A DNA stretch of 64,000 nucleotides from Methanosarcinales archaeon. Its GTDB lineage: Archaea > Halobacteriota > Methanosarcinia > Methanosarcinales > Methanoperedenaceae. The DNA is taken from NCBI GenBank assembly GCA_905339155.1, contig CAJPFJ010000011.1:1-64000 (forward strand), read 5' to 3'. A model generated the notes under the pieces. That model did no database searches. It had not been told where the DNA came from and was given only the letters and a program-made list of their open reading frames with translations. The position numbers and the translations under genes are program-made. Each line of letters begins with the position of its first letter. The first letter of the stretch is position 1. Shown one piece after another: positions 2,578-48,309 of the stretch.

Positions 2578-2764
2578 TTAAGCCTCTAATATCTTGAAGT
2601 CGACGGGAACTTTGCATCTGTCAGCATGATCCTTGATAAGCTCGGTGCAGAACGAGTGAAATGTCTTGACAATCACCTCCTTTTCCTGAAGGAGTTTCTC
2701 GATCTCTCGCGCATGTTCCTTGCTGCTTCCTTTTGAGAAGGTGATGGCGAGGATATTAGAGGGG
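2578..2764 (-). pseudogene. UvrD/Rep-type helicase fragment
   Basis: On the minus strand a frame of about 60 codons reads ILAITFSKGSSKEHAREIEK and later VKTFHSFCTELI. These match UvrD/Rep superfamily 1 helicase motifs Ia (LxxTFTNKAA-like) and Ib (TFHSF). The frame starts abruptly at the end of a methylase fragment (2763) and stops at 2578-2580 after KILEA, so Walker A, Walker B and everything C-terminal are missing. It is a short internal piece of a helicase gene, joined to methylase sequence by rearrangement. The family call is fairly secure from the two motifs; the origin of the fragment is unknown. Confidence 0.6.
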
Positions 2765-2952
2765 CGATGGTCTCACCCCTGATAAGGTCAAGTGAACATG
2801 CATCTCCGACATAAGCCTTTATCTCCGGCGCCACATTATCAGCATCCAGGGTCGCATAAGAAAAGTCCAGCCTGTTTCGCGCCACCATGACCGCCTCAGG
2901 ATTTATGTCCATACCCAAAGCGCGCCGTGTAGCGTAAAATGAGATTGCGCGG
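2763..2952 (-). pseudogene. DNA methylase fragment, copy A
   Basis: Minus-strand remnant of the methylase found in better shape at 4376-5077. It keeps the segment from RRALGMDIN through the LDFSY/YVGDA region to ETI, then switches to helicase sequence. At its upstream end about 60 bases are missing between the parts encoding LRYTA and RRALG, which shifts the frame. It directly abuts the RelE-type toxin gene at 2956. It cannot encode an active enzyme because motif IV (HPPY) and the C-terminal half are gone. Confidence 0.7.
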
Positions 2953-2955
2953 TAT

Positions 2956-3222
2956 TCAAAAATTTCTGTAAGCAATTTTCCTGGGTAAAATATCAAATAC
3001 GATTACCTGCTTAATTTTTTTATCAACTTTATATATAATACGCCAGTCACCGACACGTATTCTGTAAATATTATTATGACCTTTCATTTTTATAATGTCA
3101 TGCTTGATTGGAGCAAATGAAAATTGAAGTTCATCAAATATGTCACCACAACTATTTTGAACTTCTTCTGGAAGATGCAAAAAGCTTTTTTCAGCTTTTT
3201 TCGTCAAAACAACGTTAAACAT
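2956..3222 (-). CDS. RelE/ParE-family toxin
   Basis: An 88-residue protein of the RelE/ParE fold, typically a ribosome-dependent mRNA interferase or gyrase inhibitor. The diagnostic stretch is YRIRVGDWRIIYKVD at about 53-67, followed by a final beta-strand (VIVFDILPRK). It overlaps the 3' end of the upstream partner by 8 bases, as in translationally coupled type II TA pairs, so 3215-3415 is its probable antitoxin. It is flanked on both sides by decayed methylase fragments. RelE versus ParE activity cannot be told from sequence alone. Confidence 0.82.
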   Translation of the reverse strand: MFNVVLTKKAEKSFLHLPEEVQNSCGDIFDELQFSFAPIKHDIIKMKGHNNIYRIRVGDWRIIYKVDKKIKQVIVFDILPRKIAYRNF

Positions 3223-3415
3223 TCAAGTTCTTTCTTGCTTTTATCGCACGCCAATCCGTATAATTACCAGCTTTGAATTCTTTTTCCCCTTCTACGATAG
3301 CTATTAGCTCATCTTTCTCTGGTTTGACTTCAGGAACCAATAAGCTCTTTAAATCTTTTATTTCGGTTCTCAAAAGCTTCAGTTCCCTGTAAATGCTTTC
3401 ATGTGTTGCTGCCAT
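3215..3415 (-). CDS. probable antitoxin partner of RelE-type toxin
   Basis: A 66-residue charged protein encoded just upstream of, and overlapping, the RelE-type toxin. An N-terminal helix with heptad-like spacing (YRELKLLRTEIKDLKSLL) is followed by a Pro/Glu linker and a C-terminal segment (FKAGNYTDWRAIKARKN). This resembles the many small archaeal antitoxins whose C-terminus wraps RelE toxins. No DNA-binding motif is obvious. The role is inferred from gene order, size and overlap. Confidence 0.7.
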   Translation of the reverse strand: MAATHESIYRELKLLRTEIKDLKSLLVPEVKPEKDELIAIVEGEKEFKAGNYTDWRAIKARKNLNV

Positions 3416-3456
3416 TTTCTTTAATCCCTGAATATTATGTGTTTGGAATATTTAAA

Positions 3457-3752
3457 CCTGACCACCATTTCATTCTCCCTGAACTTCAGTGACCTTTCCC
3501 CATCACCTGTATTAATATCCACCCCACGGCGCGCCGTCCAAGAAGTTTGCATTCTACAAGCGTTGTGCCTGACCCCATTATCTGGTCAATGAGAAGTTCT
3601 CTGGGCACAGTGTAGCGCAAAATGAGGTTTCACGGGATGTATGGCGAACAAGATGTCCCTGTAATTTCCGACATGCTTCGCCCGGTCGCCACTATCGGGG
3701 AAGCGAAAGACGGTGGTTGTTTCAGGGGTGAAGGTGGAGGGGGCGAATTCTA
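3457..3752 (-). pseudogene. DNA methylase fragment, copy B (internal deletion)
   Basis: The minus strand carries the methylase N-terminal part (TFTPETTTVFRFPDSGDRA), continues with disrupted frames through the nucleotide-level equivalent of the LRYT and GTTLVE region to GVDIN, then jumps to the last codons of the gene (ERSLKFREN...). The whole middle of the gene is therefore deleted. The N-terminal end stops at the motif GGTGGAGGGGGCGA (+ strand, about 3740-3753), the same boundary found in copies C and F and, slightly altered, in D and E. It separates the TA modules at 2956-3415 and 3808-4292. Confidence 0.7.
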
Positions 3753-3807
3753 GCAACCCCTACTTTTCTTTGGCAACCATTATAAGGATATAAATCAAAT
3801 TTAAAAT

Positions 3808-4023
3808 ATGGCTGGATCGATTACAATTGAAGATGTATATGATGAGCTGAAGACGATAGAGAGAAAAATGGTAACAAAAGAAGATTTAGAAGCTCTCTTC
3901 GACTCAGTTGAAATTCTCAGTAATCCCAAAACGATGGAAGCAATACGAAAAAGCGACCTTGATATTAAAGAAGGACGGTTTAAGGAAGTGTCTTCTGTTG
4001 AGGAGCTACTCAGCGAGCTGTGA
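3808..4023 (+). CDS. probable antitoxin (pair with 4020-4292)
   Basis: A 71-residue acidic, mostly helical protein: AGSITIEDVYDELKTIERKM at the start, SVEELLSEL at the end. The stop overlaps the start of the RelE-type toxin gene. This gene order and overlap are typical of archaeal RelBE-like modules. A short AT-rich stretch at 3776-3805 could hold a promoter. This is the only TA module of the array reading on the plus strand. The function is inferred from its neighbour. Confidence 0.72.
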   Translation: MAGSITIEDVYDELKTIERKMVTKEDLEALFDSVEILSNPKTMEAIRKSDLDIKEGRFKEVSSVEELLSEL

Positions 4024-4292
4024 ACATGACTTGGACAGTCAAAAGGACAGACACCTTTCTTGAATCTCTCAGATCTATCAGAAAAAATAAAGAAGCTCTC
4101 ACGGAACTTGATAAGAAGCTCAAGCGATTGCGGGAGGACCCTTTGCATCTAGGGGGCTGGCTTTCGGGCGAACTGCATGGCAAGAAATCAACCAGGATAT
4201 CAAGTAAATATCGTCTTATTTTCACACCTGATGAAACGGAAAAAGTAGTTTATCTTAACTGGATCGACCATCGAAAGACTGCTTACGACTAA
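4020..4292 (+). CDS. RelE-type toxin
   Basis: An 89-90 residue RelE-superfamily protein, a putative mRNA interferase. Visible signatures are a helical N-terminal half (FLESLRSIRKNKEALTELDKKLKRL), then LSGELHGKKSTRISSKYRLIF, corresponding to the core beta-strands, and a terminal YLNWIDHRKTAY, with the H/R/Y residues typical of RelE/YoeB C-termini. It can start at GTG 4020, overlapping the antitoxin stop, or at ATG 4026. It faces methylase fragment copy C across an 84-base gap. Confidence 0.82.
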   Translation: MNMTWTVKRTDTFLESLRSIRKNKEALTELDKKLKRLREDPLHLGGWLSGELHGKKSTRISSKYRLIFTPDETEKVVYLNWIDHRKTAYD

Positions 4293-4375
4293 TGCTGATT
4301 ATGCCAATTTCAAAAACTCTACAAATTAAATGATGTTGTTTCCTGGATGTTCGGGGAAAAAGAAAAAAGCAGCAC

Positions 4376-5077
4376 CTACCACCACTTCATACTCTCCCTG
4401 AACTTCGCCGTCCTCTCATCCGAATCCGGTTTCCTGAACACATACAGGTGCTCATGCCCTATCAGGTAAAAATCATATTTCTTCCCGAACCATTTCTCTC
4501 TTGTGCTTTTCATCTTCCACTGCATCTTGATTATATCCTCCTTGAGAATAAAATCCGCCTCAAGGAAGTTCATCAGCACCCGCGGCGTTATGGGAATGAA
4601 ATGCTTGTTGCGCCGCGAATCACCCATGAGGATAGCACAGTGCTTTCCCGGTTTGAGGACGCGCATGCACTCAACCGCTACCCGGCTCATTTCATCCTGG
4701 AATTCGGCAATGTTATGAACGCTTGATAAATCTCCCTCGCGATTATGGGAATAAGGGATGATGCTGGCATAAGGAGGATGGGTTGCGATGAGGTCAATTG
4801 TCTCGCTCCCGATAAGGTCGAGTGAACGCGCATCCCCGACATACGTTTTTATCTCAGGCGCCACATAATCAGCATCCAGGGTCGAATAAGAAAAGTCCAG
4901 CCTGTTTCGCGCCACCATGACAGCATCCGGATTGATGTCCACGCCTACGGCGCGCCGCCCCAGAAGCTTGCATTCCACAAGCGTTGTGCCCGATCAAGCC
5001 ATCTGATCAAGAACCTGCTCACCGGGCGCCGTATATCGAAGAATGAGGTTTCGGGGGTGAAGGTGGAGGGGGCGAGT
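4376..5077 (-). pseudogene. DNA methylase (N4/N6 type), copy C, 5' end damaged
   Basis: The best-preserved copy of the repeated methylase. From about 4978 the frame is open for 200 codons: GRRAVGVDINPDAVMVARNR (end of motif I), THPPYASIIPYS (motif IV, HPPY variant of DPPY), HCAILMGDSRRN, and a C-terminal module ending FRESMKWW. Motif I itself (DQMAGSGTTLVE in copy D) is broken by a frameshift near 4980-4995, so no full-length protein can be made from this start. The 5' end also lacks about 84 bases between two copies of GGTTTCGGGGG, consistent with deletion between direct repeats. It begins exactly where the PIN toxin gene ends (5078). Confidence 0.75.
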
Positions 5078-5506
5078 TCAGATATTTTCTAAGAAAAAGA
5101 GCTCAACATCAAAGGCTTTTTTATTGATTTCCAGAAGTATTTCCTCCTCCTCTTTAAACAGTGCTGGAGAGCCTATACTTTTTGAAACTGCCATTGTGAA
5201 ACAATCTGAAAGTGAAATTGCACGTTCACACTTATATTTTCCAGCGATCATTTGAATCTCTCTACCCTCGATAACTTCAGCCCCGTCTAAAACCATATTA
5301 ATCTTCTTTTTTGCTTCTTGAAAACCTTTCTGCCTGCAAAAAACATAAAATATCTCAGAAACAACCGTTTCACTTATGTATATCGAAATTCGGCTTTCAA
5401 CTATTTTTTCTTTAAATTTTCGACCGAGAGTTGTTTCTAAAAAATATTCTATCCAGACGCCTGTATCAACTACGACTCCTGGATAAGCGCTCAAATCTTT
5501 TTTCAT
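5078..5506 (-). CDS. vapC: VapC-like PIN-domain toxin
   Basis: A 142-residue PIN-domain ribonuclease, the toxin of VapBC-type modules. Acidic active-site residues are visible in VVVDTGVWIEY (Asp near residue 14), SETVVSEIFY (Glu near 49) and LSDCFTMAVSK (Asp near 100), followed by EEEE. Such proteins cleave tRNA or rRNA when unpaired with antitoxin. The start lies 41 bases inside the upstream gene, suggesting coupled translation. The stop abuts methylase fragment copy C. Confidence 0.88.
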   Translation of the reverse strand: MKKDLSAYPGVVVDTGVWIEYFLETTLGRKFKEKIVESRISIYISETVVSEIFYVFCRQKGFQEAKKKINMVLDGAEVIEGREIQMIAGKYKCERAISLSDCFTMAVSKSIGSPALFKEEEEILLEINKKAFDVELFFLENI

Positions 5507-5723
5507 CCAGTAATCTCAACTCCTCTAGATCTTTATAAGCCTGTCCTTTCTCAATGCATCCAAAAAGAGGTAATAACTTTTTTTTATTTTTTCGTTTACC
5601 CCCTTCAAGTAAATATTTAATGGTCTCATCGTAGGAGACTCTTTTTTTCTCTTTCTGTCGAATTTCTGCCATAAATTTCATTAAAAGCTCTTTTGTATCG
5701 TCTTTTATGTGTATAACAGTCAT
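5466..5723 (-). CDS. vapB: VapB-like antitoxin
   Basis: An 85-residue protein, highly Lys/Glu-rich, beginning TVIHIKDDTKELLMKFMAEI. This looks like a short beta-strand plus helices of a ribbon-helix-helix DNA-binding N-terminus, followed by a basic segment (GGKRKNKKK) and a C-terminal toxin-binding tail. It sits directly upstream of the PIN gene and overlaps it by 41 bases. VapB identity is inferred from this arrangement. Confidence 0.75.
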   Translation of the reverse strand: MTVIHIKDDTKELLMKFMAEIRQKEKKRVSYDETIKYLLEGGKRKNKKKLLPLFGCIEKGQAYKDLEELRLLDEKRFERLSRSRS

Positions 5724-5788
5724 ATCTATCCCTTTAGATTTTATATTATCTAAAGTTTTCTAATTGTATGTCATACTGCCACCTACCA

Positions 5789-6475
5789 TCACTTCATACT
5801 CTCCTTAAATTTCGCCGTCCTCTCCTGATCATTCGGTTTCCTGAACACATACAGGTGCTCATGCCCTATCAGGTAAAAATCATATTTCTTCCCGAACCAT
5901 TTATCTCGTATGCTTTTCATCTTCCACTGCATCTTGATCATATCCTCGCGAAGTATGAACCCCGCCTCAAGAAAGCTCATCATAACCCAGGGCGTTATGG
6001 GAATGAAATGCTTGTTGCGTCGCGAATCACCCATGAGGATGGCGCAGTGCTTTCCTGGTTTGAAGAGGCGCATATACTCGACTGCGACTTTCCTCATTTC
6101 ATCCTGGAATTCGGCAATGTTATTCACGCTTGATAAATCTCCCTCGCGGTCATGAGAATAAGGGATGATGCTGGCATAAGGAGGATATGTTGCGATGAGG
6201 TCGATGGTCTCACTCCCTATAAGGTCAAGGCAGCGCGCATCACCGACATACGTTTTTATCTCAGGCGCTGATAATCAGCATCCAGGGCGCATAAGAAAAA
6301 TCCAGCCTGTTTCGCGCCACCATGATCGCATCCGGGTTTATGTCCCCACCCACGGCGCGCCGCCCCAGAAGCTTGCATTCCACAAGCGTTGTGCCCGAGC
6401 CAGCCATCTGATCAAGAACCAAATCCTTGGGCGCAGTGTAGCGCAAAATGAGGTTTCGGGAATGAAGGGGGCTAA
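5789..6475 (-). pseudogene. DNA methylase, copy D, frameshifted
   Basis: A nearly complete second copy of the methylase, split by frameshift. The upstream part (6261-6475) reads NLILRYTAPKDLVLDQMAGS, then GTTLVECKLLGRRAVG and DINPDAIMVARNRLDFSY, so motif I is intact. Around 6270-6285 a base loss destroys the LDADYVAPE segment. The downstream part (5789-6127) resumes with NIAEFQDEMRKVAVEYMRLF and ends at FKESMK, two codons earlier than copy C. At nucleotide level it is very close to copy C over hundreds of bases. It lies between the PemK/MazF and PIN TA modules. Confidence 0.75.
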
Positions 6476-6517
6476 TTAGATAAAGACTCTTGTGATCAAT
6501 ATCCTGAGTTATTGATT

Positions 6518-6850
6518 TCAATGCCGCAGGATTTCAATGACTTTTTCAATAACATCATCGATTCTTTTCTTTTTAAGGTGACCTGCTGAATAAAAGATTA
6601 TATTGCTATCGACCGTAAATATTCGGTTAGGTCTTATATGACTACTTTTTTTAAGACTGCCTTGCTCGAAATCGTTCTCATCTAAAGGGATAGCATTTTC
6701 GTCTTTAACTTTTTGACTGGTTATCAAGCATAAGATCACATCGTCACCCTTCAGCTCTGCAATTACCAGCGCCGGACGTCTCTTAGACAGTGAAAAGTCC
6801 GAAAACGGAAACGGAAGGACAACTACATCTCCTTTTACAAATCTTGCCAT
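6518..6850 (-). CDS. PemK/MazF-family mRNA interferase
   Basis: A 110-residue endoribonuclease toxin. The family signature is clear at the N-terminus: KGDVVVLPFPFSDFSLSKRR, then PALVIA, matching the MazF/PemK 'GDxxxxxFPFxD...KxRPxLVI' pattern. CLITSQ and a conserved LKKSSHIRPNRIF region follow. It overlaps the upstream antitoxin gene by 16 bases. It lies between methylase fragments D and E. Confidence 0.9.
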   Translation of the reverse strand: MARFVKGDVVVLPFPFSDFSLSKRRPALVIAELKGDDVILCLITSQKVKDENAIPLDENDFEQGSLKKSSHIRPNRIFTVDSNIIFYSAGHLKKKRIDDVIEKVIEILRH

Positions 6851-7038
6851 GCTTCATCTTCTTCCGGGCGAAGCCATTCTTTTCTCAGTGAGGATTCGCT
6901 TGCTATTGCAGTTTCCATACTCTCTTTCCGTGATTTTATTCGAAGAAAACGGATAAAATCGAGTATCTCCTCAAATATATCATCCGGAACCTGCTCGATT
7001 TCGCGTAAGATCAATTCTTTTCTTGTAACGTTTACCAT
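6835..7038 (-). CDS. DUF2281-like antitoxin
   Basis: A 67-residue protein with the pattern EQVPDDIFEEILDFIRFLRI. This is typical of DUF2281-type small proteins that precede PemK/MazF or PIN toxins (IxxLPEExxxEVLDFVxFL...). The C-terminus is Trp/Asp/Glu-rich (RKEWLRPEEDEAWQDL), a common toxin-wrapping tail. The gene is coupled to the PemK/MazF toxin by a 16-base overlap. Confidence 0.82.
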   Translation of the reverse strand: MVNVTRKELILREIEQVPDDIFEEILDFIRFLRIKSRKESMETAIASESSLRKEWLRPEEDEAWQDL

Positions 7039-7180
7039 GATATTTTGCCCAATTATATATCAATTCATTTGGCTATAATATTTTTGCCTGATATTATTTT
7101 CTTATCAGGATGATATTTCAAAAAAGAAACCGCAGATAAGCGTACTATCAACACTTTCGGTCAACATTATTTTAACGGCG

Positions 7181-7198
7181 CTGGGGTTGTTACCCCAG
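7181..7198. repeat. short perfect hairpin
   Basis: CTGGGGT and ACCCCAG form a perfect 7-bp stem with a 4-base loop, followed by a GC-rich stretch with GGCG/CGCC pairings up to about 7225. It sits at the truncated end of methylase copy E and may mark a recombination or insertion scar. No T-run follows on either strand, so a terminator role is unsupported. Confidence 0.4.
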
Positions 7199-7221
7199 AC
7201 CCCGGCGGATGCGCCGCCGCT

Positions 7222-7389
7222 GGCGGGGTTTAACATGAACTCACCGGGCGCCGTATAACGAAGAATGAGGTTTCGGGGGATGTAGGGCGACCGGTTGCCC
7301 CTGTAATTGCCAACGTGCGTCGCCAAGTCACCGCGGTCGGGGAAGCGAAAGATGGTGGTGGTTTCGGGGGTGAAGGTGGGGGGTAACAA
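7222..7389 (-). pseudogene. DNA methylase N-terminal fragment, copy E
   Basis: The minus strand encodes the methylase N-terminus (PPTFTPETTTIFRFPDRGDL ... SPYIPRNLILRYTAPGE) and then departs into unrelated sequence before motif I. It is the only copy in the array that retains the segment between the two GGTTTCGGGGG direct repeats uninterrupted. It can start at a TTG. The nuclease/DGQHR gene begins 70 bases to its right on the opposite strand. Confidence 0.7.
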
Positions 7390-7459: not shown

Positions 7460-9754
7460 ATGAGCGACGATGAAATGGTTATGGAAGGACTTGTATCAAG
7501 AAAAGATCTGGAGCAAACATATAAAAAAAATAATGTTAAATATATTTATAAAAAAATTGTAAAGCAGGATCTTGAACCTTATATCGCAGATGGTTGGGAA
7601 AAAATAAATAGCAAAAATAAAGAATTTTTAAAATTACGAAAATTAAAAGATTTTGCCTCAGTTTTTGAAGATGAAGTTTGGTGTATTCTTTATAAAATGG
7701 GATTCGACGAGATGAATAAAGATCATAATTTTTCAATCCTGAGAAAAGGGTCGAATCTCAGTAAACAAATTGATGTATTCGCTAGAGATGATCAATGTAT
7801 TTGTGTTGTAGAATGCAAAGCGGCTGAAAAACCTCACACTAAACGATCTTTAGATAAAGATATTGACCAATTAGCGGGTATACATCATGAAATAAATCTA
7901 TCAATTTTTTCACATTATAAAAATTTAGGAAATAATAATAAATTTAAAATTATTTGGATTATTGCACTCAAAAATATTGATATTAGTGAAAATGATAGAG
8001 AACGTGCAAAATCAGCAAATATCAAAGTAATTGATGAATCAATGATAAACTATTATTCAAATCTTTCAACTCACTTCGGTCGTTCATCAAAGTATCAGTT
8101 TCTTGCAGATATGTTTCCAGGTAGAGATATTCCAGAATTAATTGAACCTGTTCCAGCCCTAAAAGGGAAGATGGGTAATACTGATTTTTACTCTTTTGTT
8201 ATTGAACCCGAAAAATTACTAAAAATTGCATATATTGCTCATAGGGCAAAAACCAACGAAGAGGATATCGATACCTATCAGAGGATGGCAAAAAAGAGTC
8301 GATTAAATAAGATAGCAGAATACATACAAAATAAAGGAATTTTTCCCACAAGTATTGTGATTAACATTGAGGCAGATAGGCCCATAAGGTTTGATCAAGC
8401 TGCTGGAATGGCGGGAAAAAATGCAATACTTGGGACTCTATATTTACCAAATAAATTCAAAACAGCATGGATTATAGATGGGCAGCATAGATTATTTGCT
8501 TATTCTAACTTACAAGAGGCACAGACTGCCACACTTCCTGTGATAGCTTTCGAAAATTTAGATTCTGATGTGCAAGCAAAATTATTTGTTGACATTAATG
8601 GGGAACAGGTAAAGGTCCCAAAAAATCTACTAAGTGACTTATATTCAACGATACATTGGAATTCAACAAATCCAAAGGATAGATTATTAGCTTTAACATC
8701 TCGACTTATTAAAGAATTAAATGACTGGCCAAAATCACCTCTTAGAGATAGAATAATTAATATTGAAGGCCATAAGACTAAGACTAGAAGTTTAACATTG
8801 ACGGCAATTACAACGGAAATGAATAAATCTCGAATGCTAGGGTCTATTCATTCCAATAAGGCAAAAGATATAACCCCAGGCCCTTTATTTCAAGAAGATT
8901 TAGATTCATCATTAATAAAAGCCAGAGATATTATCTCCGGATATTATTCAATTTATTTAAATAATGAAAAAGTTAGAAAACAATGGGATTTTGGAAGTGA
9001 AGAGGGGGGATATATCTGTACGAATCAGGGAATTATTTCAACTCTTAGAGTTTTGAAAGCGATTTTAGATCATTTAGAAAATAAAGACCATATTGAGGTT
9101 AGAAAAATAAATACAAACGAATTGTTAAATAAGATTGAAAAATATGTATCTCCAATAATTACACATTTAGCCGAAGCCTCTCCTAAAACACTTAAAGAAT
9201 TTAGAGAACAATACGGAGAAGGTGGATATAAGTCAAGCACTTTCGCATTATTCAGAAAGATAAATGAAGTATTTCCCAATTTTGAGCCATCTGGTTTTCA
9301 GGAATATTTAAAACAGGTTGACACGTCAACTAACACCGAAGCCTATGAGTATCTATTAAAAATTGAGTTAATGATTCAGAAACACGTTGTTAGTTCATTG
9401 AAATTGAAATATGGAGATGATTATTCTCAATGGTGGCATCACGGTGTAAAAGACACAATAAAGACTAGTGCAATGGCGCACGCTACACAAGAAGGGGAAT
9501 ATAAATATTTTGAAAAATATATTTATTTAATAAATTTAAAGGAGATAATAGAAGATAATTGGGATATTTTTGGAGAAACTTATACTATTGATGCTAAACC
9601 TTCAGAAAGCAAGAAAAAAAGATTGGATTGGTATACAAAGGTAAATAGCATTAGAAATAAAGTTGATCATCCTCCAAAAGGCGGTGTCACTGATGAGCAA
9701 CTTGAATACGTTATTAAAATCTATAATGAATTGATGCCCAAATTAGAAATTTAA
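7460..9754 (+). CDS. PD-(D/E)XK + DGQHR (DndB-like) + HEPN-like protein
   Basis: A 764-residue multidomain protein, probably for defence. Residues about 65-170 look like a Mrr/PD-(D/E)XK nuclease: FEDEVW helix, then QIDVFARDD with Asp105, and CVVECKAAE with Glu118-x-Lys120. The centre holds the family-defining DGQHR at 340-344 (WIIDGQHRLFAYS) followed by VDINGEQVKVPKNL, as in DndB/DGQHR proteins with a ParB-like fold. The last ~90 residues carry SIRNKVDHPP, an R-x4-H motif (Arg732, His737) typical of HEPN RNases. The coding sequence is strikingly AT-rich compared with its neighbours, suggesting transfer. A Dam-type methylase follows 24 bases later. No dndCDE, dpd or brx genes are near. The domain calls are by eye; the function is inferred. 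Confidence 0.85.
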   Translation: MSDDEMVMEGLVSRKDLEQTYKKNNVKYIYKKIVKQDLEPYIADGWEKINSKNKEFLKLRKLKDFASVFEDEVWCILYKMGFDEMNKDHNFSILRKGSNLSKQIDVFARDDQCICVVECKAAEKPHTKRSLDKDIDQLAGIHHEINLSIFSHYKNLGNNNKFKIIWIIALKNIDISENDRERAKSANIKVIDESMINYYSNLSTHFGRSSKYQFLADMFPGRDIPELIEPVPALKGKMGNTDFYSFVIEPEKLLKIAYIAHRAKTNEEDIDTYQRMAKKSRLNKIAEYIQNKGIFPTSIVINIEADRPIRFDQAAGMAGKNAILGTLYLPNKFKTAWIIDGQHRLFAYSNLQEAQTATLPVIAFENLDSDVQAKLFVDINGEQVKVPKNLLSDLYSTIHWNSTNPKDRLLALTSRLIKELNDWPKSPLRDRIINIEGHKTKTRSLTLTAITTEMNKSRMLGSIHSNKAKDITPGPLFQEDLDSSLIKARDIISGYYSIYLNNEKVRKQWDFGSEEGGYICTNQGIISTLRVLKAILDHLENKDHIEVRKINTNELLNKIEKYVSPIITHLAEASPKTLKEFREQYGEGGYKSSTFALFRKINEVFPNFEPSGFQEYLKQVDTSTNTEAYEYLLKIELMIQKHVVSSLKLKYGDDYSQWWHHGVKDTIKTSAMAHATQEGEYKYFEKYIYLINLKEIIEDNWDIFGETYTIDAKPSESKKKRLDWYTKVNSIRNKVDHPPKGGVTDEQLEYVIKIYNELMPKLEI

Positions 9755-9778
9755 GTTGACTAAGAGGAAAAAACATAA

Positions 9779-10606
9779 ATGAATTCAATTCAGGACATTA
9801 AACCATTCCTACGTTGGGCAGGAGGAAAAACACGGGTAGCCAATTTTTTAGAAGAACACTTACCTCCAAATTTTACAAATGGTAATAGATATTATGAACC
9901 CTTCCTAGGAGCTGGAAGTCTATTTTTTCGTTTAAATCCTATAAATGCAACTTTATCTGATAATAATAAAAATTTAATTGAATGTTATAAAGCAGTTCAA
10001 GAACATCCAAAATTAATTGCAAAATATCTTAAACAACATTTATCGAATAACTGTAAAGACTATTATTATAAGATGAGAGATAAATATAATGACTCTTCCC
10101 CCTCAATTGTTAAAGCTGCTCTTTTTATTTATTTGAATAAAACATGTTTTAATGGAATTTGGAGAGTAAATAAAAAGGGTCAATTTAATGTCCCTTATGG
10201 TTATAAAGAACATCCATCTTTGCCTACAAGAGATGGTTTGGTAAATTTATCTAATGCATTGTCAAAAGCAGACGTTGTCCATCGGGATTACAAAGATATA
10301 ATCAAATATGCAGAAAAAGGAGATTTTGTCTATTTTGACCCGCCATATCCTCCTCTGAATGGAACTTCTTATTTCACAAATTATACAATGGAAGGCTTTG
10401 ATAAAAATGATCATGCTGAATTAGCTTCCTTAGCCAATATATTAGATAAAAATGGATGCAATCTCATGATTTCAAATGCAGATATTCCTTTTATTAGATC
10501 TCTGTATGAGGGCAAATTCATTTTACATGAACTTGATGTAATACGATTTATAAGGGCAGATGGAAAGAGATACAAAGTTCAAGAACTTGTTATTACAAAC
10601 TATTAG
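9779..10606 (+). CDS. dam: Dam-family DNA adenine-N6 methyltransferase
   Basis: A 275-residue D12-class (MboIA/Dam/M.EcoRV-like) adenine methyltransferase. It starts KPFLRWAGGK, the hallmark N-terminus, has the SAM-binding motif EPFLGAGS at 40-47 and catalytic motif IV DPPYPP from 187. KTCFNGIWRVN... at about 120-135 is the usual target-recognition/FNGxxRxN region. Its length is normal for the family. It follows the nuclease/DGQHR gene by 24 bases on the same strand and shares its low GC, so the two probably form one operon in which this enzyme protects host DNA. The target sequence cannot be read from the gene. Confidence 0.93.
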   Translation: MNSIQDIKPFLRWAGGKTRVANFLEEHLPPNFTNGNRYYEPFLGAGSLFFRLNPINATLSDNNKNLIECYKAVQEHPKLIAKYLKQHLSNNCKDYYYKMRDKYNDSSPSIVKAALFIYLNKTCFNGIWRVNKKGQFNVPYGYKEHPSLPTRDGLVNLSNALSKADVVHRDYKDIIKYAEKGDFVYFDPPYPPLNGTSYFTNYTMEGFDKNDHAELASLANILDKNGCNLMISNADIPFIRSLYEGKFILHELDVIRFIRADGKRYKVQELVITNY

Positions 10607-12060: not shown

Positions 12061-12127
12061 ATGAAATGGACCTGCTTTGAAATGGATTTATTTAAATAGT
12101 AAGGCACACAAGAAATACCATGATAAA

Positions 12128-12346
12128 ATGATGAACAAAATGGTTACTCTTGATAAAGTTCTCGAAGAAACAGAACATTTAGAATTTGATGATCGGGAGT
12201 ATCTATTAAATATTCTTTCTAAAAGACAAATTGAGTTAAGAAGGATCGAAATATCTAAACGGGTAAAAGAAGCATTGAAGGCTTACAAAGAGGGAAATGT
12301 AAAGAGCGGGAAGCTTAATGAGCTATGGAAAGACCTGAATGATTGA
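12128..12346 (+). CDS. antitoxin of RelE-type module
   Basis: A charged helical protein of about 72 residues from ATG 12128 (89 if read from ATG 12077). I prefer the internal start because an AT-rich TTTATTTAAAT at 12085-12095 looks like the TATA box, placing the transcript start near 12118. It contains HLEFDDREYLLNILSKRQIE and VKSGKLNELWKDL, a pattern of archaeal addiction-module antitoxins. It overlaps the toxin gene by 8 bases. Its 3' part is duplicated in a broken chimera at 25140-25330. Confidence 0.8.
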   Translation: MMNKMVTLDKVLEETEHLEFDDREYLLNILSKRQIELRRIEISKRVKEALKAYKEGNVKSGKLNELWKDLND

Positions 12347-12614
12347 ACTTATATGGGATGAAAAGTTTAAAAGATTATTTAAAAAGTGGAGCCAGAAACA
12401 TCCTGATTTAATGGAGCAATTCAGGAATAAAATGGAATTATTTGTGATTGATCCTTTTCATCCATCATTGAAAACACATAGCTTAAGCGGCATCCTAAAA
12501 GGATCCTGGGCAATGCGAATAAATTATGAACAAAGGTTGATATTTAGATTCGTGGATAAAGAAAAAAAGAAGGTCTTGCTGATAGATTTAGGAACACATA
12601 ATGAAGTGTACTAA
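12339..12614 (+). CDS. RelE/YafQ-type mRNA interferase toxin
   Basis: A 91-residue RelE-superfamily toxin: IWDEKFKRLFKKWSQKHPDL at the N-terminus, then LKTHSLSGILKGSWAMRINY and QRLIFRFVD, the characteristic 'H-L-G-l-kg-w--Ri---yR-iy' core of YafQ/HigB/RelE toxins, and a terminal LLIDLGTHNEVY with His and Tyr near the end. It overlaps its antitoxin by 8 bases. A deleted copy of the same gene survives at 25060-25147. Confidence 0.88.
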   Translation: MIELIWDEKFKRLFKKWSQKHPDLMEQFRNKMELFVIDPFHPSLKTHSLSGILKGSWAMRINYEQRLIFRFVDKEKKKVLLIDLGTHNEVY

Positions 12615-25147: not shown

Positions 25148-25424
25148 TCAGGTCTTTCCATAATTCATTAAGCTTCCCACTCTTTACATTTCCCTCTTTG
25201 TAAACCTTCAATGCTTCTTTTACCTGTTTAGATACTTCGATCCTTCTTAACTCAATTTGTCTTTTCGAAAGAATATTTAATAGATACTCCCGATCATCAA
25301 ATTCTAAATGTCCTGTTTCTTCGCCCCCTAAACCTTCACTCCCGAAACCACAACCGTCTTTCGCTTCCCCGATAGTGGCGACCGGGCGAAGCATGTCGAA
25401 ATTACAGGGGCATCTAGTCACCAT
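25140..25424 (-). pseudogene. chimera: methylase N-terminus fused to antitoxin C-terminus
   Basis: An open frame of 94 codons. The last 59 or so (HLEFDDREYLLNILSKRQIE ... SGKLNELWKDLND) are nearly identical to the antitoxin at 12128-12346. The first part is antisense read-through of the methylase N-terminal fragment (copy F). The antitoxin's own start is lost. The junction is at GGGGGCGAAGAAACAG, where methylase boundary GGGGGCGA meets antitoxin CGAAGAAACAG with shared CGAA. It is probably non-functional; residual expression as an orphan antitoxin cannot be excluded. Confidence 0.7.
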
Positions 25425-25522
25425 ACATCCCGCGAAACCTCATTTTGCGCTACACTGCGCCCAGAGAACTTCTCATTGACCAGATGGCGGGCTCGGACAC
25501 AACGCTTGTAGAATGCAAACTC
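25327..25522 (+). pseudogene. DNA methylase fragment, copy F
   Basis: Plus-strand methylase remnant: TFTPETTTVFRFPDSGDRAK, then frame-broken sequence equivalent to NLILRYT, DQMAGS and TTLVECKL, ending at ACTCC (25522). It is the sixth copy of the family in this window and the only one outside the 2.6-7.4 kb array. It is in the opposite orientation and has the same N-terminal boundary next to TA sequence. Confidence 0.7.
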
Positions 25523-25741
25523 CTAAATTCCCAACTTTTTAGGCACTATGATATCCAATTTTTCAACTGTTTGTCTCATATAATAAGGAGGAACTACATC
25601 CTTTTTTTCAATTTCAAATGAAGAAACAAGAATCATTACACCACTTTTCAAGAGTTCAAATTCGACTTTTTCTTCTTCGGATTCTTTTTCCTCAAATGCA
25701 TCTATTAGCAGCTTTTTTGACGGGACTAACTCCTTTGAGCC
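25523..25741 (-). pseudogene. unidentified coding remnant
   Basis: On the minus strand a frame of about 72 codons opens directly after a TGA and reads SKELVPSKKLLIDAFEEKES, then EEEKVEFELLKSGVMILVSS and YYMRQTVEKLDIIVPKKLGI before TAG. The composition is protein-like with no internal stop, but there is no usable start before an internal ATG. It may be the 3' end of a small accessory gene cut off by the methylase-fragment rearrangement. The stretch 25742-25847 holds no feature. Confidence 0.35.
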
Positions 25742-44622: not shown

Positions 44623-45516
44623 TTATTCTATCTTATAATTAAATATAAAATCCTCATTATTGTTGATAGAGTTATCCAATACATAGCTTCTATCATACAG
44701 CCATTGAAACATCTCTTTTCTTTTATATTCAAATTGTAAACTTAAATCATCGCTTTCCAACACGATGATTGGTTTGAACTGATTAATTGTTTTCTCCGCT
44801 CCTTTTAAGAACAGAAACTCTGCACCCTGGATATCTACTTTTATGAAATCTACTCTACCAATTTTGTTCTCATACACGAAATCATCGAGAGTGGTACATT
44901 GAACCTCAATAGAACTAGAATCTCTCACTTTTACCAGTCGATTTGCTTGCGTTTGAAGATTCGTAGAAAAATATGATGAACCTTTGTTTTCTCCTAACGC
45001 AACAGGAACAATAACAATATTCTTCAGAGCATTAAGTTCAACATTTGCTTTCAGGTTTCTAATGTTTATAGGTAGTGGCTCGAAGGCATAGCAGGTACAA
45101 TGCGTCCTTTTCGCTATATTCAAAGAGAAGTGACCGAGATTCGCTCCGACATCTATAAATGTAGATTGATGATTCGTTTTTGAAACTATATAATCTAAAA
45201 GGTATTTGTCTCTTTTCGTTGATTGAAACATAACATCAAAATTCTCGCCACTATTATCAATATCTATTTCTGGATGATAATAATATTGTATATTATATGG
45301 CTCTGTGACTATTATCACATCACCGTTACGAATAATTATCTCATTTAGTTTTTGTCTGTTATGCAAATCAATTAACTTCTGTATTAATTCTTTAAACTGC
45401 CTTCGTTTTATATATCCGTCATTTATTAAATTCATTTTCAAGAAGTAATAATCAGTATATCGTTGTCCTAATAATAAATTTCCAAGCCATAATATATATG
45501 ATTTCATGTTAACCAT
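44623..45516 (-). CDS. FkbM-family methyltransferase
   Basis: A 297-residue (294 from ATG 45507) SAM-dependent methyltransferase. FIDVGANLGHFSLNIAKR is motif I, CYAFEPLPINIRNLKANVEL motif II, and DFIKVDIQGAEFLFLKGAEK the FkbM hallmark DVEGxE variant. These enzymes O-methylate sugars, which fits the glycan cluster. Confidence 0.92.
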   Translation of the reverse strand: MVNMKSYILWLGNLLLGQRYTDYYFLKMNLINDGYIKRRQFKELIQKLIDLHNRQKLNEIIIRNGDVIIVTEPYNIQYYYHPEIDIDNSGENFDVMFQSTKRDKYLLDYIVSKTNHQSTFIDVGANLGHFSLNIAKRTHCTCYAFEPLPINIRNLKANVELNALKNIVIVPVALGENKGSSYFSTNLQTQANRLVKVRDSSSIEVQCTTLDDFVYENKIGRVDFIKVDIQGAEFLFLKGAEKTINQFKPIIVLESDDLSLQFEYKRKEMFQWLYDRSYVLDNSINNNEDFIFNYKIE

Positions 45517-45686
45517 CCTAATACATAAGGAGCAAAACCAACCATTATAAACCTCCCTTTTATATTATCACATAAATTAACAATATAAATATCACTAATA
45601 TTATTAGTAGTAAAATTCCCACTTCCATAAGCGTAATCTGGATTATTATGTGGAAATTGTAAAATATTACTTACTTTTTTTATCAT
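45504..45686 (-). CDS. short unknown ORF in glycan cluster
   Basis: A 60-residue frame with 13-base overlap into the FkbM gene and a 9-base gap to the upstream gene. It reads NNPDYAYGSGNFTTNNISDI, then YIVNLCDNIKGRFIMVGFAP. No family recognised. The spacing fits an operon gene, but length and composition also fit a gene remnant in this AT-rich stretch. Confidence 0.35.
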   Translation of the reverse strand: MIKKVSNILQFPHNNPDYAYGSGNFTTNNISDIYIVNLCDNIKGRFIMVGFAPYVLGWLT

Positions 45687-45695
45687 ATAATGAAC

Positions 45696-47345
45696 CTATA
45701 TAAATTTAGTAAAATAATCTTCATAATTAAATTCAGTAAAATAATTATTAATATATTTTTGTATTTTTTTTACCTCAAATTCTTTATCAAAAGTTTCATC
45801 AATTAATTGATTTTTGATACTAATTAAATCATTTTTATTTAAATTTTCCTTCCACTCATTGAAATAAAATTTGCGAGTAATATCATATATTTTTTCGGTT
45901 TCAGCAACTGAGAATGTTTTAACACCATGTATCATTCCTTCAAAAGCTATTGAATTATCATCATATAGAACTAAATCAACTATTGGAAAAATTTCATCCC
46001 ACTTGAATGCACCATATGCCATAAAATTTTTAGGTAACTCCTTTTTAAAAGACTTTAGTATATCACACTCAATATAATCTGGATGGAATTTTAATAAGAC
46101 ATTAATTTCAGTATTTCCAAAAATATCGATTAATAAATTTAAAATTCCATTATACTTTTTTAGATCATACGAAAATGCATATACAATTTTTTTATTTATT
46201 TTTTTATTAGGATATGATATTTCAATATTACTTTTACTTTTTAAAAAATGTTTCTTAAATCTTAATGCACCACCAACAACAATTTCAGATGGATAATTCG
46301 CCTGTTCCAATAATAAATTATTAATAATTATTCCTACAGTCGCAATTTTATCCGGAAAAATTGGCAAGTGTTTTTCTATTTTACTGGGAAAATAATTTAA
46401 TAATTTATAAGACACCCCTGTATGTTGATATCCCGTTATCTTTGTATCAGATTTTAAAATATCTTTAACATAAGGATACATTTTTTCCCAGGTTTGGTTT
46501 TCATAAGGGAACAAAATAGTTTTGGGATTTAGATCGAATAATTTAATAGCGATCTCTTTTTCAATAAATACATCTAAACCTCTAAATGTCAAATAATCTT
46601 TATTTATAAATAATTGTAATAGTTCGGTACAATCATAGTTTTTATAGATAAATTTTTCGTTTAATATAATGCGACTATATAAAAAAGATTTAAATGCATT
46701 TAACGTTTTAAAAAAACTTAAAAAATACTCCAATGATACAGCATCAAAACCACAAGATTTTGTTTTTAAAAACTTAACAAAATCACTTCTCCGTATCATT
46801 TTATATACAACCAATAATTTACCATTTCTTTTTAAATCATTAATTAAGTCTCCAAAATATTCGTCTCTTAAACATTCATCCTCATCAATACTTCTATGAT
46901 CAAAGTATGTTCTTACCACATAATCATATTCTTTTTCTTTTATATCTTTTAATCTACTAATAATACTGAAGAGTAAATTAATAAATAATAATATAATTAA
47001 TTTTGGAAAAAATAGAAGTTTAGATTTAAGAAAATAGTAGTCTCTTTTTCCTATAATCCTTTTGCCATATTTCTTGTTAAGAAGCTCATATAATATTTGA
47101 TCTTCTTTACTGATTTGAACATAAATTTCTATATCAGAATCTAATAATTCACTGATTTGGATATATTTTTCTAAAAATTCATATAGTTTTGTTTCCGCTT
47201 CTAAACGATTTATAGCAGCAGATGAAAGATATTTCATAGAAAAATTGTTAACTAATATATTCGCTAATTTATCATTATATACAACAATAAACTCATTCAA
47301 AAGTGGTTTCTTATATTGTATATCACCACTACTTATTAGTTTCAT
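45696..47345 (-). CDS. putative polysaccharide-biosynthesis GT-B-like protein
   Basis: A 549-residue protein, very AT-rich and Lys/Ile/Asn-rich. A hydrophobic segment at about 110-135 (LLFFPKLIILLFINLLFSII) could be a membrane anchor. The C-terminal half looks like a GT-B/capsule-synthesis fold: TILFPYENQTWEKM, ITGYQHTGVSYKLLNYFP, KIATVGIIINNLLL, VLLKFHPDYIECDI and LVLYDDNSIAFEGMIHGVKT. This resembles capsular polysaccharide (KpsS/surface-carbohydrate) families. Its substrate is unknown. Base composition differs sharply from that of genes such as rfbG. Confidence 0.75.
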   Translation of the reverse strand: MKLISSGDIQYKKPLLNEFIVVYNDKLANILVNNFSMKYLSSAAINRLEAETKLYEFLEKYIQISELLDSDIEIYVQISKEDQILYELLNKKYGKRIIGKRDYYFLKSKLLFFPKLIILLFINLLFSIISRLKDIKEKEYDYVVRTYFDHRSIDEDECLRDEYFGDLINDLKRNGKLLVVYKMIRRSDFVKFLKTKSCGFDAVSLEYFLSFFKTLNAFKSFLYSRIILNEKFIYKNYDCTELLQLFINKDYLTFRGLDVFIEKEIAIKLFDLNPKTILFPYENQTWEKMYPYVKDILKSDTKITGYQHTGVSYKLLNYFPSKIEKHLPIFPDKIATVGIIINNLLLEQANYPSEIVVGGALRFKKHFLKSKSNIEISYPNKKINKKIVYAFSYDLKKYNGILNLLIDIFGNTEINVLLKFHPDYIECDILKSFKKELPKNFMAYGAFKWDEIFPIVDLVLYDDNSIAFEGMIHGVKTFSVAETEKIYDITRKFYFNEWKENLNKNDLISIKNQLIDETFDKEFEVKKIQKYINNYFTEFNYEDYFTKFI

Positions 47346-48309
47346 AATATTTATTCTTCCTTATACCTACAGGAATATATTCAATATTTTTTAGATCCCC
47401 ATTTGGAACAGTCAAATTGTTTTTTTCCTTATAATAAGCGTCTAATCTTTCAAATAATTTTTTGGATTTACTTATTCCATCATATTGAAGATCATAATTA
47501 AAATTAATTTTTTCATTTGATATATTAAACCAACGTGATAATGTAATTTTAGTTAAATTCCATCCTTTGGAGGCTACTTGATACCAATCCTTATCTCGTG
47601 CCGCACTTGTAGTTATAAACATAATGCCCTCATCTTTAATTATCCGATTAAATTCATTTATACTGCCCGGCATATCATCGTATTTATTATGTTCAAATGC
47701 TGAAATTGAGATAAGTGCATCAACCGCCTTATCATTTAGTGGTATATTATTAAATGTCCCTCTTAAAAATTTTATTTCCCCAAATTTATTGTGGTTTTTC
47801 GTCTTTTCATTATGATATTCTATGTAAGATTTAAGTTTCTTATTTAAATTACGTATTACTTTTCTTGGATTGAGTAATGCTTTTGGAACGGATTTTAGTA
47901 TATGCATATACGCATTGGTAGATTTACCATAGGTCATATATTCCATATATTCATTTTCAAATGATCCCAGATCAGTTTCAATAATTTCTATATCAAAAAT
48001 TCCTTTGGCTTTTTTGGGAAAATCCCTATGTGTAAAATCTAAACTGATTACATTATATCCTCGAGCCGCTAAAAGAAATTGTGTCATTCCATAACCAGCC
48101 CCAGCATCTAAAATTGTGGCCCCTGGTAAAATATTATTATTCTCTAATTGTCTGGTAATCCAAATAATATCTAAATCATAATGCCAACCATTAGGCCAAT
48201 TAAATACTTCCAGCCAATGATCTATTTCCTTTAATAATTCTTTATCTTCTAACAAACCAATGTCAAGTAATTCAATTAAATCATTCATTGTTTTCTCTTT
48301 TAAATTCAT
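47329..48309 (-). CDS. class I SAM-dependent methyltransferase
   Basis: A 326-residue (320 from an inner ATG) methyltransferase. GATILDAGAGYGMTQFLLAA is motif I; DFTHRDFP follows, then KAVDALISISAFEHNKYDDM and RIIKDEGIMFITTSAARDKD. It overlaps the 549-residue gene by 17 bases and shares its AT-rich composition, so the two probably arrived together. Likely a glycan or lipid methylase. Confidence 0.88.
   Translation of the reverse strand: MNLKEKTMNDLIELLDIGLLEDKELLKEIDHWLEVFNWPNGWHYDLDIIWITRQLENNNILPGATILDAGAGYGMTQFLLAARGYNVISLDFTHRDFPKKAKGIFDIEIIETDLGSFENEYMEYMTYGKSTNAYMHILKSVPKALLNPRKVIRNLNKKLKSYIEYHNEKTKNHNKFGEIKFLRGTFNNIPLNDKAVDALISISAFEHNKYDDMPGSINEFNRIIKDEGIMFITTSAARDKDWYQVASKGWNLTKITLSRWFNISNEKINFNYDLQYDGISKSKKLFERLDAYYKEKNNLTVPNGDLKNIEYIPVGIRKNKYYETNK

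What the first reader, a model, noticed from the sequence alone, without database searches (positions are those of the whole stretch)
7460..10606. Two-gene candidate defence system: nuclease-DGQHR-HEPN fusion plus Dam methylase
One 764-residue protein combines a PD-(D/E)XK-like site (Asp105, Glu118-x-Lys120), a DndB-type DGQHR core (340-344) and a terminal HEPN R-x4-H motif (Arg732/His737). A DNA-cutting and an RNA-cutting active site may thus flank a DNA-sensing ParB-like core. A Dam-type methylase follows 24 bases later with the same low GC. DGQHR proteins are known from phosphorothioation (Dnd) and deazapurine (Dpd) systems, but no partner genes of those systems are here. A self-contained modification/abortive-infection unit is a reasonable hypothesis. 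It sits next to a TA array.
Basis: partly seen in the sequence, partly recalled or inferred. Interest (0 to 1): 0.8.

Follow-up and report, generated by a model that had tools for sequence, protein, structure and literature searches.

The report
Restriction system with swappable DNA-marking partner
A methane-oxidising archaeon carries a two-gene cassette that looks like a DNA self-marking enzyme plus a three-part cutting protein that reads the mark, and in some relatives the marking enzyme appears to be replaced by a completely different, radical-SAM type of enzyme, which hints at an unknown kind of DNA mark.

Summary
Gene 7460-9754 encodes a predicted PD-(D/E)XK nuclease fold (residues 65-200), a ParB/DndB-type DGQHR core (236-384) and a HEPN fold (622-764). 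A DpnM/Dam-type adenine methylase follows 24 bases later. Of 20 full-length members, window included, a Dam-type gene is directly adjacent in 13, a radical-SAM gene is adjacent (1) or one gene away (4), and neither is seen in 2. On the tree the partners change at least three times, and one origin of the radical-SAM pairing is rejected. Relatives of the radical-SAM enzyme also sit beside DrmA/DrmB, PbeA/PbeC and SNF2/ParB cassettes, though others do not. Best reading: a compact restriction-modification-like system whose three-domain protein is the mark-gated effector and whose marking enzyme is exchangeable. HEPN catalysis looks optional (motif in 17 of 20). Against: two members without a partner, no marked GATC avoidance in the window's contig, no bench test. 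The open-licence papers searched do not show this. Most novel reading: the radical-SAM enzyme writes an unknown protective DNA mark.

The parts
7460..9754 (+). three-domain effector gene (PD-(D/E)XK - DGQHR/ParB - HEPN), 764 aa
7652..8059 (+). PD-(D/E)XK nuclease fold, residues 65-200
7667..7669 (+). E70, invariant glutamate before the nuclease core
   Evidence: 20 of 20
7772..7774 (+). D105, catalytic aspartate candidate
   Evidence: 19 of 20, N in L126
7811..7819 (+). E118-C-K120, E-x-K motif
   Evidence: E118 20 of 20; K120 17 of 20
8165..8611 (+). DGQHR / ParB-type core, residues 236-384
8477..8491 (+). DGQHR pentapeptide 340-344
   Evidence: 20 of 20
9323..9751 (+). HEPN fold, residues 622-764
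   Evidence: PF18731 Swt1-like HEPN, below cut-off, in 4 of 5 relatives scanned and 2 of 9, not in the window protein
9653..9670 (+). R732-x4-H737 HEPN motif
   Evidence: 17 of 20; lost in G407, L030, L031
9755..9778 (+). 24-base spacer with an AAGAGG ribosome-binding-like stretch
   Evidence: sequence
9779..10606 (+). Dam-type (D12, DpnM-like) DNA adenine methylase, 275 aa
   Evidence: TIGR00571, PF02086; best solved relative M.DpnII-1 2dpm E 2.3e-54

Best explanation
A compact restriction-modification-like defence cassette. Shown: the predicted fold of each domain, residue conservation, and gene pairing across archaea, bacterial plasmids and virus-like contigs. Inferred: the Dam-type enzyme marks host DNA, probably by N6-adenine methylation at GATC or a related site. 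The 764-residue protein binds DNA and a nucleotide through its ParB-like DGQHR core, reads the absence of the mark on incoming DNA, and cuts it with the PD-(D/E)XK domain. The HEPN domain adds RNA cleavage, or in some relatives only a structural or sensing role, as a back-up or abortive arm. In some relatives a radical-SAM enzyme, with or without a small DGQHR-family protein, supplies the mark instead of Dam.
For: Dam is directly adjacent in 13 of 20 full-length loci, upstream in 5 and downstream in 8, overlapping in several. In L126 a radical-SAM gene directly follows and overlaps the large gene, the layout otherwise seen with Dam; in pNL1, Agrobacterium, G407 and G606 it is one gene away in the same cluster. 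The tree needs at least 3 Dam/radical-SAM changes, and starred branches force 3 changes of the radical-SAM label; a single origin of the radical-SAM pairing is rejected, p-AU 0.000193. A 57%-identical relative (G606) has the radical-SAM cluster and no Dam match in 19 kb. The window's Dam is closest among solved proteins to the methylase of the DpnII restriction system and scores higher with a type II (295.6 bits) than with an orphan (238) methylase model. Only 26 of 185 genomes of the order have a Dam-like gene at all at E<=1e-15. Nuclease residues are nearly invariant. A DndB-like ParB-fold protein bound ATP and GTP in vitro (PMC12704722, passages).
Against: G076 (60% identical, nuclease residues intact) and G059 have no Dam or radical-SAM neighbour in the stretch held. 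Neither genome shows Dam at E<=1e-15 in the order search or the radical SAM at E<=1e-20. GATC is not notably avoided in 80 kb of the own contig (319 seen, 370 expected, rank 5 of 16); it is mildly low in two other Dam loci (L002 0.79, L022 0.64) and not low in two radical-SAM loci (1.05, 1.03), but unrelated loci vary as much. Dam and effector distances agree only inside the close archaeal cluster; among 7 representatives r is 0.15, not significant. The Dam type is not exclusive: in 7 of 8 further stretches with a Dam gene no match to the effector was found. K120 is lost in 3 of 5 radical-SAM-paired proteins and D105 in one. No activity has been measured.
Confidence: 0.62

Rival explanations
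1. The effector is mainly an abortive or toxin-like protein (HEPN RNase plus DNase) held in check by the Dam mark on host DNA, so the pair behaves as an addiction or suicide unit rather than as direct restriction.
For: HEPN fold with its best second-look match to AbiF; the system sits among TA pairs and relatives lie on virus-like contigs; PD-lambda-5 is called a compacted prophage version of an RM+Abi system (PMC9519451, passages).
Against: The HEPN R/H pair is lost in 3 of 20 while the nuclease D and E are kept in 19 and 20 of 20; an addiction reading does not by itself explain the change from Dam to a radical-SAM enzyme.
Confidence: 0.15
2. The protein is part of the modification machinery, a DndB/DpdB-like helper or regulator that nicks or opens DNA for the marking enzyme.
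For: DGQHR core related to DndB and DpdB; small DGQHR-family proteins accompany the radical-SAM enzyme in 4 of 5 loci.
Against: Dam-type enzymes need no helper (general knowledge); where a small DGQHR-family protein is present the large protein is there in addition; the DndB- and DpdB-type equivalog cut-offs are far from met (97.8 of 450 and 89.7 of 300 bits).
Confidence: 0.1
3. A mobile-element function, such as phage or plasmid self-protection or competition with other elements, rather than host defence.
For: Nine of the 20 loci lie on virus-like contigs, some by eye beside phage structural genes or an integrase; pNL1 is a conjugative plasmid; in G606 the neighbouring genes look phage-like by eye.
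Against: The window copy lies among housekeeping and TA genes, and I saw no phage-like gene by eye in its first 20 kb. This reading is compatible with restriction as the biochemical activity.
Confidence: 0.1

Closest known systems
Type II restriction-modification with DpnM/Dam-class methylases (DpnII-like)
   Same: adjacent D12 adenine methylase and a protein with a PD-(D/E)XK nuclease fold; methylase closest among solved proteins to M.DpnII-1
   Different: nuclease fused to a ParB-like core and a HEPN fold; in some relatives a radical-SAM gene is found instead of the methylase
Dnd phosphorothioation systems (DndB)
   Same: DGQHR/DndB core of the ParB superfamily; exchange of the mark has a precedent, since many DndDE-type systems carry cytosine methylases instead of phosphorothioation (PMC10853773, abstract)
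   Different: no DndC over cut-off in the own genome; nuclease and HEPN folds in the same chain
Dpd 7-deazaguanine systems (DpdB)
   Same: DpdB-like DGQHR core (PADLOC DpdB E 1e-27)
   Different: equivalog cut-off not met; presence of DpdA not searched
GmrSD / BrxU / SspE nucleases
   Same: ParB/Srx-type NTP-binding domain coupled to a nuclease (PMC4619093, PMC12707154, passages)
   Different: PD-(D/E)XK instead of HNH/DUF1524; paired with a marking enzyme
PD-lambda-5
   Same: described as a compacted prophage version of an RM+Abi system with a methylase (PMC9519451, section 7 and passages)
   Different: no PADLOC PD-Lambda-5_A match to five family members; the methylase matches the PD-Lambda-5_B model weakly (51.3 bits against 295.6 for type II)

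Membership tests
Restriction-modification (type II-like) | adjacent DNA methylase gene | tested here: met
   24 bases away in the window; 13 of 20 full-length loci
Restriction-modification (type II-like) | nuclease fold with catalytic residues | tested here: met
   predicted fold and conserved residues
Restriction-modification (type II-like) | methylase protects the site the nuclease cuts | not testable with these tools
   needs biochemistry; GATC counts inconclusive
Dam / D12 adenine methylase | curated family score | tested here: met
   260.7 bits, cut-off 114.85
Dnd phosphorothioation | DndC present | tested here: not met
   own genome has no TIGR03183 match over cut-off; two weak hits (38 bits, cut-off 290.4), and weak hits also ring in 5 of 14 control genomes
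Dnd phosphorothioation | DGQHR_dnd_1 equivalog score | tested here: not met
   97.8 bits, cut-off 450
Dpd | DpdB equivalog score | tested here: not met
   89.7 bits, cut-off 300
Dpd | DpdA present | not tested
   not searched
HEPN superfamily | HEPN helical fold | tested here: met
HEPN superfamily | R-x4-6-H motif | tested here: met
   present in the window; 17 of 20 family members
ParB-CTPase fold | fold match and conserved DGQHR/QR motifs | tested here: met
   (Q274-R275 and DGQHR 20 of 20)
ParB-CTPase fold | NTP binding | not testable with these tools
   a DndB-like protein binds ATP and GTP (PMC12704722, passages)
GmrSD type IV | DUF262 with DUF1524/HNH | tested here: not met
   no such Pfam match in the window protein at E<=1; GmrSD_N only weak in single relatives
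PD-lambda-5 | PD-Lambda-5_A component | tested here: inconclusive
   no match in 5 family members at E<=10, but HMMER filters drop weak matches
Radical SAM (the alternative partner) | C-x3-C-x2-C motif | tested here: met
   invariant in 9 of 9 aligned
Radical SAM (the alternative partner) | Pfam PF04055 score over cut-off | tested here: inconclusive
   matched but at 20.8 to 24.5 bits, under the cut-off of 29.5, in 4 of 4 scanned; RefSeq names most of the plasmid ones radical SAM proteins

The most novel reading that the evidence does not exclude
The radical-SAM enzyme found instead of Dam, usually with a small DGQHR-family protein and sometimes a GHKL ATPase, is the writer of an undescribed protective DNA modification. 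It is a portable self-marking module plugged into at least four different restriction cassettes: the three-domain nuclease found here, DISARM-like DrmA/DrmB, PbeA/PbeC, and a SNF2 helicase with ParB-like proteins.
Probability: 0.4. Interest if true: 0.92.

Novelty: new variant of a known kind. Interest (0 to 1): 0.74.

Why it matters
If right, one protein joins a DNA-cutting fold, a nucleotide-switch fold known from chromosome segregation, and an RNA-cutting fold in a mark-gated defence enzyme. It also makes the open question of what ParB-like DGQHR proteins do in DNA-mark systems testable in a two-gene setting. The repeated change from an adenine methylase to a radical-SAM enzyme beside the same effector predicts a new kind of DNA mark, which could be sought in Novosphingobium aromaticivorans DSM 12444, whose plasmid pNL1 carries such a cluster.

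Tried and rejected
Chance motifs: rejected by conservation across 20 family members and by fold matches.

Dnd or Dpd membership: rejected or left open (see membership test).

GATC avoidance as support for the Dam specificity: not convincing, so not used.

Co-divergence of Dam and effector: strong on ten pairs (r 0.87, 1 of 10000 permutations as high; L026 and L031 left out, L127 not yet fetched), but it vanished when the close archaeal cluster was reduced to one member (r 0.15, 5873 of 20000 permutations as high). I do not claim it.

Sequence search of solved structures with the effector alone and as a profile: 0 matches at E<=1. Further viral scans with the N-terminal part and with single relatives gave no new contig. 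Plasmid and phage searches with other relatives gave no new full-length locus.

Rows dropped: the partial loci G062, G199 and G055 (contig edge) are outside the 20. G055 has a short match to the end of the effector and, 50 bases on, a 63% Dam. G017 and BLZ2 are the same contig (same length and place) and counted once. L025/L026 are near copies but counted as two. Three of the five full-length plasmid records are near copies of the two counted.

The K120 loss in radical-SAM-paired proteins (3 of 5 against 0 of 13, Fisher p 0.012) is not independent (two are sisters) and is only noted.

Full report
WHAT IS THERE. The window lies in an archaeal genome (G000, 3.34 Mb in 79 contigs). A relative marked as of the same genus (G017) carries the same contig as Candidatus Methanoperedens sp. 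BLZ2. The genes at 7460-9754 and 9779-10606 are on one strand, 24 bases apart, each with a GAGG-containing stretch before its start. Their GC is 0.31 and 0.30 against 0.39 for the window, which fits recent acquisition (inference).

CONSERVATION. In the 20 full-length members E70, Q103, E118, C119, Q274-R275 and DGQHR are 20 of 20, and D105 is 19 of 20 (N in L126). K120 is 17 of 20 (R in pNL1 and L126, T in Agrobacterium). R732 with H737 is 17 of 20 (lost in G407, L030 and L031). The nuclease and DGQHR sites are therefore at least as constrained as the HEPN site.

THE SMALL PROTEIN. It is a D12/Dam-class methylase (TIGR00571 260.7 bits). Its best solved relative is the DpnII-1 methylase (2dpm, E 2.3e-54), then DNA adenine methylases (E about 2e-40). 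PADLOC scores it 295.6 bits as a type II methylase and 238 as an orphan one. GATC specificity is likely but not shown.

NEIGHBOURHOOD SURVEY. Searches with the large protein covered 99 relatives (7 genomes at E<=0.001, own included), 392 of the phylum (5), 185 of the order (7) and 237 of the class (7), these three at E<=1e-30; then 232 of G407's class (2) and 58 of G234's class (2) at E<=1e-25. The sets overlap. The genome-contig collection gave 1 locus. Plasmids gave 45 records, 5 with at least 80% coverage. Phage records gave 4, core only. Viral contigs gave 45 loci of which 7 are full-length, and a later scan 27 of which 2 full-length ones were new. After removing repeats, 20 full-length loci remain, the window included. 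A Dam-type gene is directly adjacent in 13: the window, G025, BLZ2, G420, G234, L025-L031 and L127. In L031 the Dam reading frame has one in-frame stop. A radical-SAM gene is in the cluster in 5: directly next in L126, one gene away in pNL1, Agrobacterium, G407 and G606. Neither is seen in G076 and G059. Only 26 of 185 genomes of the order have any Dam-like gene at E<=1e-15, so this adjacency is not background. Eight further stretches with a Dam gene were fetched. One (G055) has a short match to the end of the large gene. In the other seven no match to the large protein was found, and one of these Dams (G057) is 56% identical to ours, so this Dam type is not exclusive to the system.

PARTNER EXCHANGE. 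The tree of the 20 proteins needs at least 3 changes between Dam and radical-SAM partners. Starred branches force 3 changes of the radical-SAM label, and holding the radical-SAM loci together is rejected (p-AU 0.000193). L126 carries the large gene followed by an overlapping radical-SAM gene, the layout otherwise seen with Dam. G606 is 57% identical to the window protein, yet has the radical-SAM gene and a small DGQQR protein and no Dam match in 19 kb. L126 and L127 were fetched after the pattern had been noted, and both fitted it (notes).

THE RADICAL-SAM GENE. Nine aligned enzymes share an invariant C-x3-C-x2-C motif. Pfam Radical_SAM is below cut-off in the 4 scanned. A B12-binding match appears in the 2 archaeal ones scanned (one just over, one under cut-off) and in neither of the 2 bacterial ones. 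In 12 plasmid records with the pNL1-type enzyme, a DGQHR gene overlaps the match in 11 and the twelfth is unannotated. I opened 5 of the 7 plasmid records of that list that lack the large gene. All 5 have a SNF2-type helicase and ParB-like genes near the enzyme; PADLOC finds the one such helicase scanned similar to ZorD and DpdE. In archaea the enzyme was found in 14 of 392 genomes, 15 places. I examined 12 of the 15: 8 lie beside a restriction cassette (G407 the large protein; L113, L114, L116 and L118 DrmA/DrmB; L115, L117 and L119 PbeA/PbeC) and 4 do not (L120-L123). PADLOC names were obtained directly for L114, L115 and L118; the others are by similarity. A further one in BLZ2 sits beside a GHKL gene with none of these cassettes in 14.5 kb. 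In viral contigs at least 471 relatives matched and 80 were kept. Of the first 39 listed, 10 lie beside one of these cassettes. The other 41 were tested only for a literal DGQ(H/Q)R motif, with 0 hits, a test that would also miss the pNL1-type small protein. So the family is wider than defence. The marking role is an inference from its place beside cassettes that elsewhere carry a DNA-marking gene (general knowledge for DISARM; for PbeABCD linked to Dnd genes see PMC10853773, passages).

MECHANISM. Best reading: Dam, or the radical-SAM enzyme, marks host DNA; the DGQHR core senses DNA and a nucleotide; the PD-(D/E)XK domain cuts unmarked DNA; HEPN adds RNA cutting or is structural. A DndB-like protein of this fold bound ATP and GTP, and changing the conserved arginine of the P motif abolished nucleotide binding in that study's controls (PMC12704722, passages). 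GmrS domains share a DGQHR-like motif in a ParB/Srx fold (PMC4619093, passages), so coupling of this fold to a nuclease has precedent. So has the exchange of marks: many DndDE-type systems carry cytosine methylases instead of phosphorothioation (PMC10853773, abstract).

KNOWN OR NEW. Nine searches of the open-licence library and parts of eight papers did not show this three-domain protein, its pairing with Dam, or a radical-SAM gene as a partner of restriction cassettes. Seen were passages of PMC4619093, PMC12839542, PMC12707154, PMC3226654 and PMC12926258; abstract, outline and passages of PMC10853773 and PMC12704722; and section 7 plus passages of PMC9519451. The other papers in the listings were seen as listings only. 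Supplements and most subscription papers were out of reach. PADLOC knows the pieces only as DpdB-like or DndB-like, as weak CARF-nuclease, Csx1, ZorD or AbiD matches, and as the unnamed candidate PDC-M34B over the HEPN part.

LIMITS. All functional steps are inferred. Counts rest on 20 loci, two of them near copies. The two loci without a partner remain unexplained; in G076, a fragmented genome, 1.4 and 1.9 kb of flank are available. Interest is 0.74: the window cassette alone is a new architecture of a known kind, and the change to a radical-SAM enzyme makes a new DNA mark testable.

Noticed in passing
2751-7374 (-) and 25397-25531 (+): Seven partial matches to one N4/N6-type DNA methylase (PF01555 in L016) lie mostly between the TA pairs and end next to the cassette; all seven hits in the own genome are on this contig. 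By eye, similar copies or fragments lie near the system in L002, L015, L016 and L022 and near other Dam genes in L079-L083, as if the gene marks an exchange hot spot.
   Followed up: partly
2959-7038 and 12077-12611: Array of toxin-antitoxin pairs: two ParE-like, a PIN toxin with a VapB-like gene, a PemK/MazF-like and a YafQ/YoeB-like toxin.
   Followed up: yes
L113, L114, L116, L118 (DrmA/DrmB); L115, L117, L119 (PbeA/PbeC): Radical-SAM gene, often with a small DGQHR-family or GHKL gene, beside DISARM-like and Pbe-type restriction genes.
   Followed up: partly
L079 and L080: GATC is strongly avoided on two contigs of same-genus genomes that carry a different Dam (2 seen, 27 expected; 26 seen, 54 expected).
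   Followed up: no
L025:12821-14321 and L026:14221-15700: A small DGQHR-family gene next to what looks by eye like a GIY-YIG nuclease gene, near the cassette.
   Followed up: no
L029:8969-9742: A second, different Dam-type gene upstream of the large gene, in addition to the one downstream.
   Followed up: no
L031:5589-6401: The Dam-type gene beside an open large gene has one in-frame stop.
   Followed up: partly
45001-48000: Three kilobases of very low GC (0.23-0.26) in the window.
   Followed up: no
L077:2616-7828: A Dam 56% identical to the window's sits behind a phosphoesterase-like gene (by eye), an ORC-CDC6-like ATPase (PF24389) and a third gene, possibly another undescribed cassette.
   Followed up: no
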